Position numbers and translations under genes: made by a program. Shown one piece after another: positions 32,889-64,000 of a stretch of DNA of 64,000 nucleotides; position 1 is the first letter of the stretch, and every line of letters starts with the position of its first letter. Source of the stretch: Clostridia bacterium (GTDB lineage: Bacteria > Bacillota > Clostridia > Oscillospirales > Acutalibacteraceae); NCBI GenBank assembly GCA_017380575.1, contig JAFODS010000072.1:1-64000 (forward strand), in the 5' to 3' direction. Below the pieces are notes generated by a model. It was given only the letters and a program-made list of their open reading frames with translations. It was not told where the DNA came from and searched no databases.

Positions 32889-32916
32889 TTTTATAATAGG
32901 AAACAGAATATGGTTG

Positions 32917-33122
32917 ATGATGGAGGCGCGGTTAATACAATTAACTCTTAAAGGTAAGGCAACGCAGAGAGCCAAAAGATTGACCGCCGAAGCGAAGGGA
33001 AAATGCCTTTTGACCTTTTGCTGGGACGTTGCAGAATATGTAACGTACTGTCACGGTTGTGGAGTGCTATCAATGAAGTCTTCGGACATGGTTGGTGATC
33101 TTGCTCAACCATGTCCTTTTTC
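32917..33122 (+). promoter_or_regulatory. Lysine riboswitch (L box) with intrinsic terminator
   Basis: The aptamer spans about 32917-33073: P1 TGAT/ATCA arms, GGAGGCGCG after P1, the conserved GACCGCCGAAGCG core (32981-32993), GCTGGGACG, and ACTGTCACGG before the closing GGAGTGCTATC. All are L-box hallmarks in the right order. A perfect 11-bp terminator stem (GGACATGGTTG 33084-33094 with CAACCATGTCC 33106-33116) and T run follow, so lysine should switch the downstream transporter off. Confidence 0.93.
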
Positions 33123-33149
33123 TTTAAAATTAAATGGAGGGTTTATACT

Positions 33150-34826
33150 ATGTCAAAAACAAAGAAAATTGTCTTGGCAGTAGTCGCAGTTGCAATTGTT
33201 GCTCTTCTTGCATTTGCATCTTTCAACGGCGGTCATCTTGCAACAGCAGCTTGTGTTGACTGTGGCGGTGCAGGTATTGTTGATGAAGCAGCTTGCGAAA
33301 CCTGCGGCGGCGAAGGCAATGTAACAGCATCATGGTGGGCTCTTGTTCCCCCGGTTATTGCTATCGGTCTTGCACTTATCACAAAGGAAGTTTACAGCTC
33401 ATTGTTCATCGGTATCGTTGCCGGTGCAATCCTTGGCTCAGACTTCAAATTCACAGGCACAATGGATCTTATCACAAACAATGGTTTGATTGATGCGGTT
33501 TCAGGTACAGCGGGTATCTTCATTTTCCTTGTTGTTCTTGGTGTTATCGTTGCTCTTATCAATAAGTCAGGCGGTTCTGCTGCTTTTGGTGCCTGGGCAG
33601 AAAAGCACATCAAGTCAAGAGTAGGCGCAATGCTTGCAACTTTCGTTCTTGGTGTTCTTATCTTTATCGATGACTACTTCAACTGTCTTACAGTCGGCTC
33701 AGTTATGCGTCCTGTTACAGACAGCAAGAAGGTTTCACGTGCGAAGCTTTCTTACCTTATCGACGCAACAGCAGCTCCGATCTGTATGATCGCACCTATT
33801 TCTTCATGGGCAGCAGCAGTTGCTTCTTACGCTCCTGAAGGACAGGGACTTTCACTTTTCATTAAGGCAATTCCTTATAACTTCTATTCACTTCTTACAC
33901 TTGTTTTCATCGTTGCAATCAGCCTTATGAAGTTCGATTACGGCCCGATGAGAATTCACGAAGTTAATGCAAAGCTTAAGGGCGACCTTTACACAGCAGG
34001 TGAGAAGGCAGAAGTTGCTGACGAAGGTCATTCTTCAAAGGGTAAGGTTATTGACCTTGTTCTTCCGATTCTCGTTCTTATCGTTGCTTGCGTATTTGCT
34101 CTTGTTTATAACGGTGGTATCTTTGACGGTGCAAACTTCATTGATGCATTCTCAAATACAGATGCAACTGTCGGTCTTCCTTGGGGTAGCCTTATTGCTC
34201 TTGTTTTTGCAATTGCATACTTCTGCATCCGTAAGGTTGTTACATTCAAGGAAGCAATGGAAGCTATTCCTAAGGGCTTCATTGCAATGGTTCCCGCTAT
34301 CCTTATTCTTACATTCGCAACAGCGCTTAAGAATATGACAGGCGTTCTCGGTGCAAAGCCGTTTGTTAACGAAGTTATGAGCAATGTTCCTGATGGTCTT
34401 GCAAGCTTTATTCCTGCAATTGTATTCCTTGTTGCTTGCTTCATTTCTTTCGCAACAGGTACATCATGGGGTACATTCGGTATCCTTATTCCGATTGTTA
34501 TCACAATCTTTGATGCAGCAGATCCGCTTCAGATCGTTGCAATGTCAGCTTGTCTTGCAGGTTCAGTCTGCGGCGACCACTGCTCACCGATTTCTGATAC
34601 AACAATTATGTCATCAGCAGGCGGTCAGTGTAACCACCTTAACCACGTTTCAACACAGCTTCCGTATGCAATTTCAGTTGCTGCAATCTCATTTGTAATG
34701 TATGTTCTTGCAGGTTTTGTACAGAGTGCTGCAATCGTGCTTCCGGTTGGTGTTGCTGTAACGGTTGTATTCCTCTTCCTTATGAAGATGGTTATGGTAA
34801 AGAAATACGGCAAAGAAAACGTATAA
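33150..34826 (+). CDS. lysW: NhaC-family antiporter, probable lysine transporter LysW
   Basis: 558 residues, about 12 membrane helices, NhaC-type antiporter. Control by a lysine riboswitch is the classical reason to assign such NhaC members to lysine uptake (LysW); the sequence alone does not show substrate. Residues 1-30 form an extra helix, followed by CVDCGGAG (35-42) and CETCGGEG (49-56), a DnaJ-like zinc-finger pair, before the core begins at about 62. GGAGGG precedes ATG 33150. The symbol rests on the riboswitch. Confidence 0.85.
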   Translation: MSKTKKIVLAVVAVAIVALLAFASFNGGHLATAACVDCGGAGIVDEAACETCGGEGNVTASWWALVPPVIAIGLALITKEVYSSLFIGIVAGAILGSDFKFTGTMDLITNNGLIDAVSGTAGIFIFLVVLGVIVALINKSGGSAAFGAWAEKHIKSRVGAMLATFVLGVLIFIDDYFNCLTVGSVMRPVTDSKKVSRAKLSYLIDATAAPICMIAPISSWAAAVASYAPEGQGLSLFIKAIPYNFYSLLTLVFIVAISLMKFDYGPMRIHEVNAKLKGDLYTAGEKAEVADEGHSSKGKVIDLVLPILVLIVACVFALVYNGGIFDGANFIDAFSNTDATVGLPWGSLIALVFAIAYFCIRKVVTFKEAMEAIPKGFIAMVPAILILTFATALKNMTGVLGAKPFVNEVMSNVPDGLASFIPAIVFLVACFISFATGTSWGTFGILIPIVITIFDAADPLQIVAMSACLAGSVCGDHCSPISDTTIMSSAGGQCNHLNHVSTQLPYAISVAAISFVMYVLAGFVQSAAIVLPVGVAVTVVFLFLMKMVMVKKYGKENV

Positions 34827-58164: not shown

Positions 58165-58785
58165 ATGCATAATTTTGAAGATATGATTGAAAAATATAAG
58201 CGCGATCTGCTTGAATTTTCAAAACAGAATGCTGTACATACGGATGCTTATGAAGCCCCGCAGCGACAGACGGCGGATGTAATGGCACAGCCTGTTTTAC
58301 CGAGTCAGCCTGACGAAGTGAACGCACCTGAAGCTGTAATAACGGGACGGGTCCCGTTTGCGGATTACGATGAGTTTATTGCAAATAACCGTTCGGAGGG
58401 AATTTTACGTGTGCAGGTTTTTGCCGCGAACGGAAGCTTTCCTGTACCGAATGCAACGGTACGTGTATATGTGCAGCTTGATGATGGTGAACGGGAGGTT
58501 TTCAGCGGAATAACGGACGTTGACGGTGTAGCGGACGGAATCCGTCTTCCTGCTCCTGACAGCTCAATTTCATTTGATGAAAACAGTACGGTTGCTCCGT
58601 ATGCTGTATATAAGCTAAGGGTTGAACGGCAGGGTTATGCCCCCGCATATTTTGAAGGAATCCCTGTTTTTGATTCAGTTAAATCAATTCAACCTGTGGG
58701 ATTGGTGCCCCTGAGTGCCGACAGCTCGGACGATCCGACTGTTGTACCGAATGAACCTGAAGCCTTGTTCGGAGGTGAGCGCTGA
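58165..58785 (+). CDS. Unknown protein with transthyretin/CarboxypepD-reg-like domain
   Basis: 206 residues with no signal peptide. Residues about 75-170 look like a beta-sandwich (GILRVQVFAANGSFPVPNATVRVY, GITDVDGVADGIRLP, YKLRVERQGYAP) of the carboxypeptidase regulatory type. N and C termini are Pro/Asp-rich and disordered. Shares an operon with a PG-binding protein and a GerA-type protein (1-bp TGATG overlap), so a spore-coat or germination role is likely. Confidence 0.78.
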   Translation: MHNFEDMIEKYKRDLLEFSKQNAVHTDAYEAPQRQTADVMAQPVLPSQPDEVNAPEAVITGRVPFADYDEFIANNRSEGILRVQVFAANGSFPVPNATVRVYVQLDDGEREVFSGITDVDGVADGIRLPAPDSSISFDENSTVAPYAVYKLRVERQGYAPAYFEGIPVFDSVKSIQPVGLVPLSADSSDDPTVVPNEPEALFGGER

Positions 58786-60125
58786 TGGCTGTTGAAACAC
58801 CGACAATCCCTGAATTTATAACTGTTCATCTGGGTACGCCGTCCTCGAATGCGGAAAATATAAGGGTGACTTTTCCGAATTATATAAAGAATGTGGCTTC
58901 AAGTGAAATTTATCCTACATGGCCTGAAAATGCAATCCGTGCCAATATCTATGCACAGATAAGCTATGCACTTAACAGAGTCTATACGGAATATTACCGT
59001 TCACGCGGATATAATTTTGATATAACCAATTCAACTCAATACGATCAGGCGTTTGTCAAGAACAGAGATATTTTTGAAAATATCAGCAGAATCGTTGACG
59101 AGATTTTTAACGATTACGTTGTTAAACAGGGTCAGGTGCAACCTTACTTTACCCAATATTGTGCAGGGTCGTGTCCCGGTCTTTCGCAGTGGGGAACCGT
59201 TCCTCTCGCTCAGCAGGGTTACACTCCGTACAGGATTCTTCAGAACTATTACGGCAACGATATAAATATCGTGCAGAATGCACCGATAAAAAGCAATGTG
59301 CCGTCGTATCCGGGTACGGCATTAAGGTTAGGTAGTGTCGGTGAAGAAGTCAGCGACATTCAGCGTCAGCTCAACAGAGTAGCACTCAATTATCCGTCAA
59401 TTCCGAAAATAAGAAATCCGAACGGTATTTTTGAAGAAACAACTCTTGCTGCTGTACGTAAATTCCAAAGCATATTCAATCTTGCTCAGGACGGTATAGT
59501 GGGTAAAGAAACATGGTACAAAATCAAGTATATTTATAACGGAATCAAAGGTCTTTCGGAGCTTTATTCCGAGGGTCTTTCAATAAGCGACACTCAGAGG
59601 CAGTTTTCAAAAGTGCTCAAACGCGGTGACAGGGGTGTTCCTGTAAGAACGCTTCAGTATTATCTTGCATTTATCGGATTTTTTGACCCGGATTTTCCGC
59701 AGATATCTGTTGACGGAATCTTCGGTCAGGAAACCTACGATGCGGTTTTAACCTTCCAGAAGAAAAATAAGCTTAAGGTTGACGGTGTTGTCGGAAGAAG
59801 CACGTGGAATGCGATACAGGACGCCTACGACGGCATTTTAAGGACACTTCCGCCAAGGTATAAGAATTACTCAAATCTGATTTATCCAGGTTATTTCATT
59901 ACTACAGGAGCTACAGGCGACGTTGTGCGTCAGCTTCAGCGGTATCTCCGTGTTATCGGACAGAACAATCCGTCTGTTCCTGTAATCAGTGTGGACGGAC
60001 AGTACGGAAGCCGAACGAAGGCTGCGGTTGAAGCTGTACAAAGACTCAACGGACTTGAGCCTACGGGTCAGGTCGGGCCGATCACCTGGAATGCGATAAT
60101 AGACCTTTATCAGGATTACAGTTAG
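58785..60125 (+). CDS. SpoIID-like protein with three peptidoglycan-binding repeats
   Basis: 446 residues. Residues about 20-175 resemble the SpoIID lytic-transglycosylase fold (VASSEIYPTW, with a Glu where the SpoIID catalytic Glu lies, and CPGLSQWGTVPLAQQGYTPYRILQNYYG at its end). Three PG_binding_1 domains follow (about 185-262, 276-354, 370-446), each with a GxxGxxV ... LQ ... DGxxGxxT pattern. No signal peptide is present, as for some spore proteins. Start after GGAGGTGAG. Confidence 0.85.
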   Translation: MAVETPTIPEFITVHLGTPSSNAENIRVTFPNYIKNVASSEIYPTWPENAIRANIYAQISYALNRVYTEYYRSRGYNFDITNSTQYDQAFVKNRDIFENISRIVDEIFNDYVVKQGQVQPYFTQYCAGSCPGLSQWGTVPLAQQGYTPYRILQNYYGNDINIVQNAPIKSNVPSYPGTALRLGSVGEEVSDIQRQLNRVALNYPSIPKIRNPNGIFEETTLAAVRKFQSIFNLAQDGIVGKETWYKIKYIYNGIKGLSELYSEGLSISDTQRQFSKVLKRGDRGVPVRTLQYYLAFIGFFDPDFPQISVDGIFGQETYDAVLTFQKKNKLKVDGVVGRSTWNAIQDAYDGILRTLPPRYKNYSNLIYPGYFITTGATGDVVRQLQRYLRVIGQNNPSVPVISVDGQYGSRTKAAVEAVQRLNGLEPTGQVGPITWNAIIDLYQDYS

Positions 60126-60172
60126 AATAAATTGTAAGTTTCCGAAAACAATATTTTAAAGGAGTGACTTCT

Positions 60173-61597
60173 TTGAGTGATAAAATATTGTTTTCGGATA
60201 ATTTCTGTGAAAATGAAAAAATGCTTGACGGCTATTTCAAAGTAGATAAAAACTTTGATGTTGTTAATACACGCTTTTTTGTAGCACAAAGACAGGCGAA
60301 GATTTATTATATAGACGGCTTTGTAAATAATGAGATATCGGAACGTGTTCTTAATTTTATGATGAGCAGGACGGATAAACTTTCCGAGAAAACAACGCCT
60401 GAAGACTTTGTGCAGAGTGTTGTTTCGTACATCGAAATGGACATCAGTACGGATATGAATTCAATTTCAAAAGTGATTTATTCAGGTGCGATACTACTGA
60501 TAGTGGACGGATTCCCGACGGCATTTCTTATAAAAACCCGTAATTATCCGCGTCGTTCGGTGCAGGAACCTGATAATGACAAGGTGCTCAGAGGTGCACA
60601 CGACGGTTTTGTTGAAGCCTTGCTTATAAACACGGCACTTATACGGCGAAGAATCCGTGATCGAGATCTGATTATGGAAGTGCACGAGGCAGGCAAACGC
60701 TCAAGGACGGATGTTGCAATCTGCTATCTTGAAAGTAAGGCGGATACAAAAACAGTAAAAAAACTTAGGAAGAAAATTGCAGAAATTGATGTAAATACCC
60801 TGAGTATGAGTCAGGAAAGCCTTATTGAATGTCTTATAAAAAAGCAGGTGTTCAACCCTTTCCCTAAAGTGCGATATACCGAAAGACCCGATTCTGCCGC
60901 GGCTTGTATTGCTGAGGGAAGTATAATAGTGTTGGTGGACAACTCTCCTGCGGCAATGATTATACCTACAAGCTTTTTTGAATTTCTGCAGGACACGAAC
61001 GATTATTATTTTCCGCCGATTGTCGGAACGTATCTCCGTTTTATACGAATGCTTATTTTCGGACTTGCTCTGCTTCTTTCACCGACGTGGTATCTTTTGG
61101 TCAGCAATCCGAGCTACATTCCCGAGTGGCTTAGTTTTATAACAGTTAAAGAATATTACACAATTCCGATTATTGTTCAGCTTCTTATTATCGAAATCGT
61201 AATTGATACTTTAAAGCTTGCTTCGCTTAACACTCCGAATGCTTTGAGTAATTCGTTCAGCGTTATCGGTGCACTTGTTCTTGGTGACCTTGCAGTAACG
61301 GCAAAGCTTTTTTCGTCCGAGGTAGTTCTTTTTATGGCATTTGTAGCAATTGCAAATTTTGCACAGCCGAGCTTTGAACTTGGCTATGCATTCAAGCTGT
61401 CAAGAATTTTTATTCTGATATTGACAGCGATGTTCAATTTATGGGGATATGTTGCAGGTATTGTGATAGTATTGCTTCAGATGTTTTTCACCAAAACCGT
61501 AACGGGAAGGGGATATATGTATCCGCTTATTCCGTTCAATGCAAAAACGCTTTCAAGGCTTCTTGTACGGCATCCGATAAGCAAGGACAACACTTGA
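60173..61597 (+). CDS. GerA/SpoVAF family spore germination protein
   Basis: 474 residues. A large soluble N-terminal half with EPDNDKVLRGAHDGFVEALLINTALIRRRI (family signature) is followed by about five helices (about 280-440; FFPPIVGTYLRFIRMLIFGLALLLSPTWYLL). The class includes GerAA and SpoVAF; the solitary gene without gerAB/gerAC points more to SpoVAF. TTG 60173 is 8 nt after AAAGGAG. Acts in the spore inner membrane. Confidence 0.9.
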   Translation: MSDKILFSDNFCENEKMLDGYFKVDKNFDVVNTRFFVAQRQAKIYYIDGFVNNEISERVLNFMMSRTDKLSEKTTPEDFVQSVVSYIEMDISTDMNSISKVIYSGAILLIVDGFPTAFLIKTRNYPRRSVQEPDNDKVLRGAHDGFVEALLINTALIRRRIRDRDLIMEVHEAGKRSRTDVAICYLESKADTKTVKKLRKKIAEIDVNTLSMSQESLIECLIKKQVFNPFPKVRYTERPDSAAACIAEGSIIVLVDNSPAAMIIPTSFFEFLQDTNDYYFPPIVGTYLRFIRMLIFGLALLLSPTWYLLVSNPSYIPEWLSFITVKEYYTIPIIVQLLIIEIVIDTLKLASLNTPNALSNSFSVIGALVLGDLAVTAKLFSSEVVLFMAFVAIANFAQPSFELGYAFKLSRIFILILTAMFNLWGYVAGIVIVLLQMFFTKTVTGRGYMYPLIPFNAKTLSRLLVRHPISKDNT

Positions 61598-63476: not shown

Positions 63477-63515
63477 AAAACTCAGTTGTGTTGAAAAACG
63501 CAACTGAGTTTTTTG
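63477..63515 (+). terminator. Terminator of the 62489 gene
   Basis: AAAACTCAGTTG and CAACTGAGTTTT with extra inner pairs, then TTTTT. Confidence 0.9.
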
Positions 63516-63535: not shown

Positions 63536-63564
63536 TTGACAAGTCAATACTATAGGTTTAAAAT
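63536..63564 (+). promoter_or_regulatory. Promoter of the mgtE leader
   Basis: TTGACA (63536-63541), 17-bp spacer, TAAAAT (63559-63564). Predicted transcript begins near 63571 with the small hairpin GCAGAA/TTCTGC. Confidence 0.82.
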
Positions 63565-63616
63565 ATTAAGGCAGAATATTTCTGCAGAATCTGAATTTTT
63601 AAAGAGGTGAATTTCT

Positions 63617-63721
63617 GTGAGTAGCGATGGTAGTTACGGGCAACGATTTTTAGCTTATTTTTTAAACAAATCATTATGTGGCGAAAAAATCGCCGTAGGT
63701 GCGTCAGTTTTCACAGATTGA
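63617..63721 (+). CDS. 34-residue leader peptide upstream of mgtE (putative)
   Basis: GTG 63617 has AAAGAGGTGA 7 nt upstream, a strong ribosome site. The 34-codon frame (begins MSSDGSYGQRF, ends GASVFTD) stops at 63721, 53 bp before mgtE. Its last codons contain GTAGGTGCGT, one partner of the alternative hairpins. Too short for standard gene calls; translation is inferred. Confidence 0.5.
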   Translation: MSSDGSYGQRFLAYFLNKSLCGEKIAVGASVFTD

Positions 63722-63774
63722 CCGAACACACCTGCGGGCGGTAGTTTCTGCCGCAGTAAAAGGGGTGTGTTCAA
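63680..63774 (+). promoter_or_regulatory. Candidate translational attenuator of mgtE
   Basis: GAACACACC (63724-63732) can pair with GGTGTGTTC (63764-63772), hiding the AAAAGGGG ribosome site, with TGCGG/CCGCA inside. The same strand segment ACACACCTGC (63726-63735) can pair instead with GTAGGTGCGT (63695-63704), 9 of 10 positions, which would free the site. No M-box core is recognisable. Confidence 0.55.
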
Positions 63775-64000
63775 ATGGACAGAATGGTTGAAGTCATCAG
63801 CAAGATGCTTGCAAGCAACAAGTTTTCGGCAATCAAAGAGATGCTCGGCGAAATGAACGTTGTCGACATTGCTTCCATGATGGAGGAGCTTGAAACCGAA
63901 GAACAGCAGGTACGCCTGTTCCGTTTGTTGCCGAAGCAGTCATCGGCTGATGTTTTTTCATATCTTGATAACGAAATCAGAGCAAATATTGTTAATGCAA
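63775..64000 (+). CDS. mgtE: Magnesium transporter MgtE, N-terminal part (runs off window)
   Basis: The first 75 residues (MDRMVEVISKMLASNKFSAIKEMLGEMNVVDIASMMEEL ... FRLLPKQSSADVFSYLD) match the MgtE N-terminal helical domain, which with CBS domains senses cytosolic Mg2+. The gene continues beyond the window edge, so membrane and CBS parts are not seen. AAAAGGGG lies about 9 nt before ATG 63775. Confidence 0.85.
   Translation, partial: MDRMVEVISKMLASNKFSAIKEMLGEMNVVDIASMMEELETEEQQVRLFRLLPKQSSADVFSYLDNEIRANIVNA

What the first reader, a model, noticed from the sequence alone, without database searches (positions are those of the whole stretch)
63536..63777. mgtE leader with a 34-codon upstream ORF and mutually exclusive hairpins
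Seen: a good promoter, then a strong ribosome site and a 34-codon ORF ending 53 bp before mgtE. ACACACCTGC can pair either with the end of the upstream ORF (GTAGGTGCGT) or, as part of GAACACACC, with GGTGTGTTC over the mgtE ribosome site. Ribosome position on the ORF could thus open or close mgtE translation. Firmicutes mgtE is usually under the M-box aptamer, which I cannot find here. If real, this would be a new magnesium-responsive leader-peptide or RNA switch.
Basis: partly seen in the sequence, partly recalled or inferred. Interest (0 to 1): 0.75.

Follow-up and report, generated by a model that had tools for sequence, protein, structure and literature searches.

The report
Magnesium-transporter leader peptide in Clostridia
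A tiny coding frame ahead of a bacterial magnesium-transporter gene keeps its first ten or so amino acids and its alternative RNA hairpins in related bacteria, so the translating ribosome itself probably serves as the gauge that switches the transporter on, a trick known from E. coli and Salmonella but not, as far as I could find, from this group.

Summary
In detail: a 34-codon GTG frame with its own ribosome site ends 53 nt before mgtE, the leader folds better than all 200 shuffles (z -4.4), and no M-box was found in the window or own genome. In the genus the frame is kept, but only codons 2-10 are constrained as peptide (pN/pS 0.19; codons 11-21 1.01). Helices 1:2 (frame start:end), 3:4 (over the mgtE ribosome site) and the alternative 2:3 are all kept. 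Beyond the genus, 95 of 198 non-redundant mgtE upstreams have a uORF starting Met-Asp/Glu, against 9 of 215 other genes (5 of the 9 are mgtE leaders). Similar uORFs precede corA (11 of 69). Some lie downstream of an M-box. Best reading: a leader-peptide attenuator in which poor translation of the N-terminus, probably at low Mg2+, frees the mgtE ribosome site; it works like Salmonella mgtQ and E. coli mgtL, but in Bacillota on another transporter family. The Mg2+ response and the stall or drop-off are inferred. The modelled switch shows in 7 of 9 genus leaders but hardly in the window's own copy. About half of the mgtE upstreams lack such a uORF. I found no published description.

The parts
63536..63564 (+). 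promoter-like site TTGACA-17-TAAAAT
   Evidence: 11 of 12 matches; 1.1 such sites expected by chance in the region; both hexamers recur in the genus upstreams
63604..63610 (+). ribosome site of the uORF (GAGGTGA)
   Evidence: conserved in alignments A2 and A3
63617..63721 (+). uORF, 34 codons, MSSDGSYGQRFLAYFLNKSLCGEKIAVGASVFTD, GTG start, TGA stop
   Evidence: frame kept in the genus
63617..63646 (+). codons 1-10, the part under peptide selection (MS[SG]D[GS][SG][YH]G[QR]R in the 11 frames compared)
   Evidence: codons 2-10 pN/pS 0.19
63614..63639 (+). region 1: start of the uORF, pairs with region 2
   Evidence: 92.8% of cells paired
63693..63717 (+). region 2: end of the uORF; pairs with region 1, or (63695-63704) with region 3
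63724..63735 (+). region 3: GAACACACCTGC; pairs with region 4 or with region 2
63763..63772 (+). region 4: GGGTGTGTTC, holds or abuts the mgtE ribosome site
   Evidence: 83.7% of cells paired
63775..64000 (+). start of mgtE (459 aa, ends at 65151 of the contig, outside the window)

Best explanation
The region is a leader-peptide attenuator of mgtE. A ribosome starts on the uORF. When Mg2+ is ample (inferred) it crosses the first codons and runs on; the leader settles with hairpins 1:2 and 3:4, and 3:4 buries the mgtE ribosome site: OFF. When Mg2+ is low (inferred) ribosomes stall on, or fall off, the conserved N-terminus (MSSDGSYGQR here; Met-Asp starts rich in Gly, Asn, Asp and Pro elsewhere), so region 1 stays covered while region 2 is not crossed; 2:3 forms and the mgtE ribosome site is freed: ON. 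Shown by computation: the uORF, its N-terminal peptide constraint, the three kept helices, the link to magnesium-transporter genes, and the direction of the switch in most genus leaders modelled. Inferred: Mg2+ as the signal, the stall or drop-off, the role of these residues, and that MgtE imports Mg2+ here.
For: Genus: 13 of 15 fetched mgtE upstreams show the uORF, the other 2 are cut by contig ends; codons 2-10 pN/pS 0.19 against 1.01 for codons 11-21; helices kept at 92.8% (1:2), 83.7% (3:4) and 97.5% (2:3) of cells in 9 leaders. Class: 95 of 198 mgtE upstreams with an M[DE] uORF against 9 of 215 control genes, p 6e-27, and against 20 of 1815 windows (98 of 198). Phylum outside the class 21 of 65. 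corA 11 of 69, ten M[DE]x[DE]P, 0 of 215 in controls. M-boxes beside some leaders. 106 leaders fold better than 110 control upstreams. Model: early ribosome opens the site in 7 of 9 genus leaders; over 106 leaders the effect exceeds that of region-shuffled leaders, p 1e-9. Precedent: mgtQ, mgtL, corL.
Against: No Mg2+ experiment. The window's own copy hardly switches in the equilibrium model. Over 106 leaders the median change is 0.001; 26 rise and 5 fall by more than 0.15, and a ribosome at the stop opens the site as much as an early one (p 0.74). The genus peptide has one Asp and no Pro, unlike the EPDP element of mgtL. 103 of 198 mgtE upstreams lack an M[DE] uORF by the rule used (the window's genus itself is among these). 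M[DE]x[DE]P is not enriched before class mgtE (2 of 198). mgtA is not significant (2 of 11, p 0.09).
Confidence: 0.6

Rival explanations
1. Same attenuator, another signal: the ribosome is slowed by charging of a tRNA, an antibiotic or general translation stress rather than by Mg2+.
For: Leader-peptide attenuators of these kinds are known (erm and amino-acid operons, recalled; the ilvB uORF in PMC11109978, passages read). The genus peptide lacks proline and a second acidic residue near its start.
Against: The uORFs stand before two unrelated magnesium-transporter families, some beside M-boxes; the peptides hold no long run of one codon.
Confidence: 0.15
2. RNA-only switch: the leader is a Mg2+- or metabolite-binding aptamer and the uORF is incidental.
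For: Very stable, conserved fold; the first codons are also region 1 of the RNA, so their conservation is partly RNA conservation.
Against: pN/pS 0.19 in codons 2-10, with changes of 60, 10 and 88 at codon positions 1, 2 and 3; the Met-Asp/Glu starts recur with differing RNA around them; no Rfam match in the leader.
Confidence: 0.12
3. Translational coupling or opposite polarity: finishing the uORF opens mgtE, as the terminating ribosome unfolds region 3.
For: In the model a ribosome at the stop codon opens the site, in the window's copy more than anything else (0.83; 0.56-0.70). In MDxxPLP-type relatives the uORF stops 0 to about 20 nt before mgtE, or overlaps it slightly.
Against: In the genus the stop lies 45-64 nt upstream of mgtE with a stable hairpin between, and this polarity would lower an importer when Mg2+ is short.
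Confidence: 0.08
4. The uORF encodes a micropeptide that acts in trans, for instance on MgtE.
For: A conserved N-terminal peptide sequence.
Against: Codons 11-21 are unconstrained (pN/pS 1.01) and later codons weakly so (0.62); lengths vary between 28 and 34 codons within the genus.
Confidence: 0.05

Closest known systems
Salmonella mgtQ leader of mgtB (PMC8092293, passages read)
   Same: Short uORF with early acidic codons; stem-loops 1:2 and 3:4 versus 2:3; transporter ribosome site buried in 3:4; destabilised ribosomes favour 2:3 and expression.
   Different: 8 codons against 34; between genes of an operon, behind a PhoP-controlled promoter, before mgtB; Gammaproteobacteria. Here mgtE in Clostridia, with a Ser/Gly/Asp start.
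E. coli and Salmonella mgtL and corL leaders (PMC11282234 and PMC11552253, passages read)
   Same: uORF before a Mg2+ transporter; acidic and proline codons make mgtL translation inefficient at low Mg2+; poor uORF translation raises the transporter.
   Different: Output there is Rho-dependent transcription termination; here a hairpin over the ribosome site. Other transporter family for mgtE. The corA uORFs of Clostridia (MDxDP) resemble the EPDP element.
M-box riboswitch (RF00380)
   Same: Controls mgtE-type transporters; found beside some of these leaders.
   Different: No match in the window, own genome or leader.
erm-type translational attenuators (recalled)
   Same: Leader peptide, 1:2/3:4 against 2:3, buried ribosome site.
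   Different: Antibiotic-induced stalling, resistance gene downstream.
mgtE motif of Thioalkalivibrio (PMC11109978, passages read)
   Same: Structured mgtE leader with ribosome site and start codon in a stem.
   Different: Proposed riboswitch candidate, one proteobacterial genus; the passages read mention no uORF for it. Not compared by sequence.

Membership tests
M-box riboswitch (RF00380) | covariance-model match at gathering score (44 bits) | tested here: not met
mgtL/corL/mgtQ-like magnesium leader peptides | translatable uORF with ribosome site before a Mg2+-transporter gene | tested here: met
   (translation itself not shown)
mgtL/corL/mgtQ-like magnesium leader peptides | early acidic and/or proline codons that destabilise or slow the ribosome | tested here: inconclusive
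   window peptide has one Asp (position 4) and no Pro; most relatives found start Met-Asp
mgtL/corL/mgtQ-like magnesium leader peptides | alternative RNA structures that depend on uORF translation | tested here: inconclusive
   all three helices kept; ribosome-dependent opening modelled in 7 of 9 genus leaders but barely in the window's copy
mgtL/corL/mgtQ-like magnesium leader peptides | transporter expression rises at low Mg2+ through the uORF | not testable with these tools
   needs reporters
mgtL/corL leaders of enterobacteria | Rho-dependent termination | not tested
   no rut-site analysis was run
erm-type translational attenuators | 3:4 hairpin buries the gene's ribosome site | tested here: met
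   site accessibility 0.01 without ribosome, 0.24 by another choice of site
erm-type translational attenuators | stall induced by an antibiotic, resistance gene downstream | tested here: not met
   downstream gene is mgtE; inducer not testable; so not filed as a member

The most novel reading that the evidence does not exclude
Bacillota use the ribosome's own need for Mg2+ as a general magnesium sensor: a large, undescribed set of leader peptides with short N-terminal destabilising or stalling codes (M[DE]x[DE]P before corA; MDxxPLP, MDxG..PR and MSSDGSYGQR before mgtE) controls unrelated Mg2+ transporters, sometimes downstream of an M-box, in parallel with mgtL, corL and mgtQ of enterobacteria. 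The proline-free Ser/Gly/Asp code of the window's genus would be a new type of Mg2+-sensitive nascent chain.
Probability: 0.5. Interest if true: 0.85.

Novelty: new variant of a known kind. Interest (0 to 1): 0.75.

Why it matters
Control of mgtE in Bacillota is usually credited to the M-box (recalled; the M-box as the B. subtilis ykoK switch seen in passages of PMC12810186). A leader-peptide layer before about half of the mgtE genes sampled here, before some corA genes, and beside some M-boxes would mean that sensing Mg2+ through translation arose or was kept in distant phyla. It gives a natural set of peptide variants for asking which N-terminal sequences make translation Mg2+-sensitive, and suggests how mgtE is controlled in genomes without an M-box.

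Tried and rejected
M-box or another Rfam family in the leader: rejected. The best low-threshold hit, a microRNA family on the minus strand (25.2 bits against a gathering score of 90), was taken as chance.

A strict DNA pattern for the genus motif over 394 genomes of the order hit only the window's own genome, once. That looked like a genus-only feature; reading upstreams of mgtE instead showed other codings.

M-box and leader as mutually exclusive: rejected. By comparing the tables by hand, 13 fetched same-family mgtE loci have an M-box within about 450 nt upstream; 6 of them also have a leader-like M[DE] uORF (L039, L065, L070, L076, L096, L100; L070 and L076 with a ribosome site of only 4 matching bases) and 7 do not (L041, L043, L058, L062, L066, L071, L092; L043 has a 65-codon MD frame with a weak ribosome site that I did not count).

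The whole 34-codon frame as a conserved protein: rejected. mgtA as a carrier: suggestive only, 2 of 11; L217 and L218 carry an acidic uORF that starts MSDES and was not counted. First ribosome model: early against stop-codon ribosome did not differ (p 0.74); kept as a limit. RNAalifold on 17 MDxxPLP leaders found only one helix, 11 pairs between the start region and the frame end.

Full report
WHAT IS THERE. At 63536-63777 there are a sigma-70-type promoter match (11 of 12), a ribosome site GAGGTGA, a 34-codon GTG frame (63617-63721) and, 53 nt later, the ATG of a 459-aa MgtE. A terminator-like hairpin (63477-63512) ends the gene before, so leader and mgtE probably form their own unit. The leader folds with z -4.38, 0 of 200 shuffles as good. 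No M-box was found in the window or own genome.

GENUS. A DNA search of 98 genomes matched 15: the own genome, 12 of 17 others of the genus and 2 of other genera. The matches of G017, G031 and G032 lie in mgtE itself. Of 15 genus mgtE upstreams fetched in all, 13 show the uORF (L001-L010, L012, L013, L020) and 2 are cut by contig ends (L011, L019). Three genomes of the genus without a DNA match (G008, G012, G016) were not read. Length changes keep the frame (34, 32, 28, 29 codons). Over 11 frames, codons 2-10 have pN/pS 0.19, with 60, 10 and 88 differences at codon positions 1, 2 and 3; over 8 equal-length frames codons 11-21 have 1.01 and codons 22-34 0.62. So the peptide is constrained at its start, MS[SG]D[GS][SG][YH]G[QR]R. 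Region 1 of the RNA overlaps these codons, which confounds the number in part; pairs among related sequences are not independent.

RNA. In 9 genus leaders (A2) helix 1:2 (63614-63639 with 63693-63717) is paired in 92.8% of cells, 3:4 (63724-63733 with 63763-63772) in 83.7%, and 2:3 (GTAGGTGCGT with ACACACCTGC) in 97.5% of 79 cells. For the 1:2 plus 3:4 structure, the shuffles reaching the observed value were 2 of 500 for cells paired, 0 of 500 for cells changed on both sides, 10 of 500 for the covariation score, 45 of 500 for pairs changed on both sides, and 456 of 500 for further pair types. For 2:3 the shuffles are uninformative (500 of 500); it has one-sided changes only, as expected of strands that also serve another helix. 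This is moderate evidence.

BEYOND THE GENUS. I read mgtE upstreams from the family (113 of 200 genomes with MgtE; 30 loci and 60 regions), from titled genomes (best 80) and from the class (176 of 291 genomes with MgtE; 29 new loci, the best matches). Of 198 non-redundant upstreams, 98 or 95 (slightly different start rule) have a uORF of 12-60 codons with at least 5 matching ribosome-site bases that starts Met-Asp or Met-Glu. Controls: 20 of 1815 windows of the same loci; 9 of 215 upstreams of other ORFs (p 6e-27). Five of the nine control peptides are the mgtE leaders of L129, L139, L163, L172 and L176, let in by an incomplete filter, so the control is too high. Relatedness was not corrected; the 200-genome family draw covers 135 genera. 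The genus of the window (MSSD...) does not count as positive here. Examples: MDAGSSGGAVPRERM (L056), MDTGNSSTSAKPRSS (L102), MDSKDGGNATVPVRLC (L021), MDSGPLPGHKFKL (L143), MDSSPLPGNK (L197). Against the control peptides, residues 3-12 are rich in Gly (2.6x), Asn (2.4x), Asp (2.1x) and Pro (1.8x) and poor in Leu, Phe and Trp; Arg is not enriched overall (0.72x), though 52 of 198 upstreams have a PR, GR or PLP after the M[DE] start against 2 of 215. In 36 disjoint pairs outside the genus, codons 2-12 have pN/pS 0.52 (pairs chosen on likeness, so biased) and codons 13-22 1.08. Outside the class, 21 of 65 mgtE upstreams of the phylum qualify.

OTHER GENES. corA: 11 of 69 upstreams have an M[DE] uORF (p 0.002), ten of them M[DE]x[DE]P, such as MDADPGEK and MDCDPGGSS, against 0 of 215 (p 4e-7). 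The same motif is rare before class mgtE (2 of 198) but occurs in 4 of 65 other phylum mgtE upstreams. mgtA: 2 of 11 (p 0.09). Other P-type ATPases: 0 of 19. The corA motif resembles the EPDP element of mgtL (PMC11282234, passages read). I did not search for the same uORFs before genes unrelated to magnesium, beyond these controls.

M-BOX. 26 of 200 family genomes have an M-box. Of 40 leader-bearing loci scanned (27 mgtE, 11 corA, 2 mgtA), an M-box lies upstream of the leader on the same strand in mgtE loci L193, L197, L206 and L211 (and about 500 nt off in L200) and corA loci L266, L282, L284 and L285. L217 has one elsewhere. Of 20 corA loci without the uORF, 4 have an M-box. So the uORF is neither part of the M-box nor its strict substitute. 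Positions were compared by hand.

DIRECTION. Leaders were folded with a stretch blocked as if by a ribosome. In 7 of 9 genus leaders (L002-L006, L008, L009) the mgtE site opens by at least 0.15 for some P-site codon within the first 12 or so, and returns near the ribosome-free level for most codons from about 17 to 30; L001 (0.24 to 0.29) and L007 (0.21 to 0.22) hardly move. In all 9 it opens again when the ribosome reaches the frame end. Over 106 leaders, blocking from the ribosome site to codon 16 changes mean accessibility from 0.250 to 0.342 (median change 0.001); with the downstream leader shuffled it goes from 0.383 to 0.341 (p 1e-9 for the difference). The site is more hidden than after shuffling in 85 of 106; 26 leaders rise and 5 fall by more than 0.15. 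In the first version, early ribosome against none was up in 30 and down in 8 of 106 (p 0.004), but early and stop-codon ribosomes did not differ (p 0.74). In 17 MDxxPLP-type leaders the uORF start region is complementary to the frame end; in 16 of 17 at most 6 of 300 mononucleotide shuffles do as well, L211 being the exception. The 106 leaders fold better (mean z -2.71) than 110 control upstreams (-1.07, p 1e-13). The polarity, ribosomes held or lost early gives ON, is that described for mgtQ (PMC8092293, passages read).

INFERRED, NOT SHOWN. That the signal is Mg2+; that ribosomes pause or drop off on the N-terminus; that the genus peptide, with one Asp and no Pro, behaves like the others; that the uORF is translated; that MgtE imports Mg2+ here. 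In the window's own copy the modelled opening is best at the stop codon, so co-transcriptional folding or another polarity must be kept in mind.

LITERATURE. Nine searches of the open-licence library listed no paper whose title or abstract start describes a uORF before mgtE or corA in Bacillota; lists were capped and subscription journals and preprints are mostly not held. Passages were read of PMC11282234, PMC8092293, PMC11552253, PMC11109978, PMC6429828 and PMC12810186. PMC6429828 reports a corA motif in Gammaproteobacteria as a riboswitch candidate. PMC13183943 (CliM, a Clostridia arrest peptide) was seen only in a listing. erm attenuation is recalled.

VERDICT. A real, conserved leader-peptide attenuator, best read as a Bacillota counterpart of the mgtQ and mgtL kind on another transporter family, with magnesium sensing by the ribosome the likely but untested input.

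Noticed in passing
window 32913-33077: Lysine riboswitch (RF00168, 88.8 bits) just before a 571-aa membrane-protein-like ORF at 33111-34826, whose family I did not test.
   Followed up: partly
window 58785-61597: Two neighbouring genes resemble spore proteins: 58785-60125 (SleB/SpoIID-like stretches) and 60164-61597 (GerXA-like, 201 bits), both below the NCBIfam cut-offs.
   Followed up: no
L033, between the uORF and mgtE: About five tandem copies of GGGGACGGTTCTCTGTTG inserted in the leader.
   Followed up: no
L201, L207: By eye the 3:4 hairpin (GACCGCCT...AGGAGGTC) runs into a T stretch, so it could be a terminator and a ribosome-site lock at once, with 2:3 as antiterminator.
   Followed up: no
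corA loci L266, L282, L284, L285; mgtE loci L193, L197, L206, L211: M-box followed by an acidic leader uORF before the same gene: two possible magnesium sensors in series.
   Followed up: partly
G025:C82, G594:C21, G628:C20, G682:C21, G702:C20, G748:C60, G888:C13: mgtE occurs as two neighbouring copies in several genomes.
   Followed up: no
L206:58-138: Clostridiales-2 RNA (RF02937) upstream of the M-box and leader.
   Followed up: no
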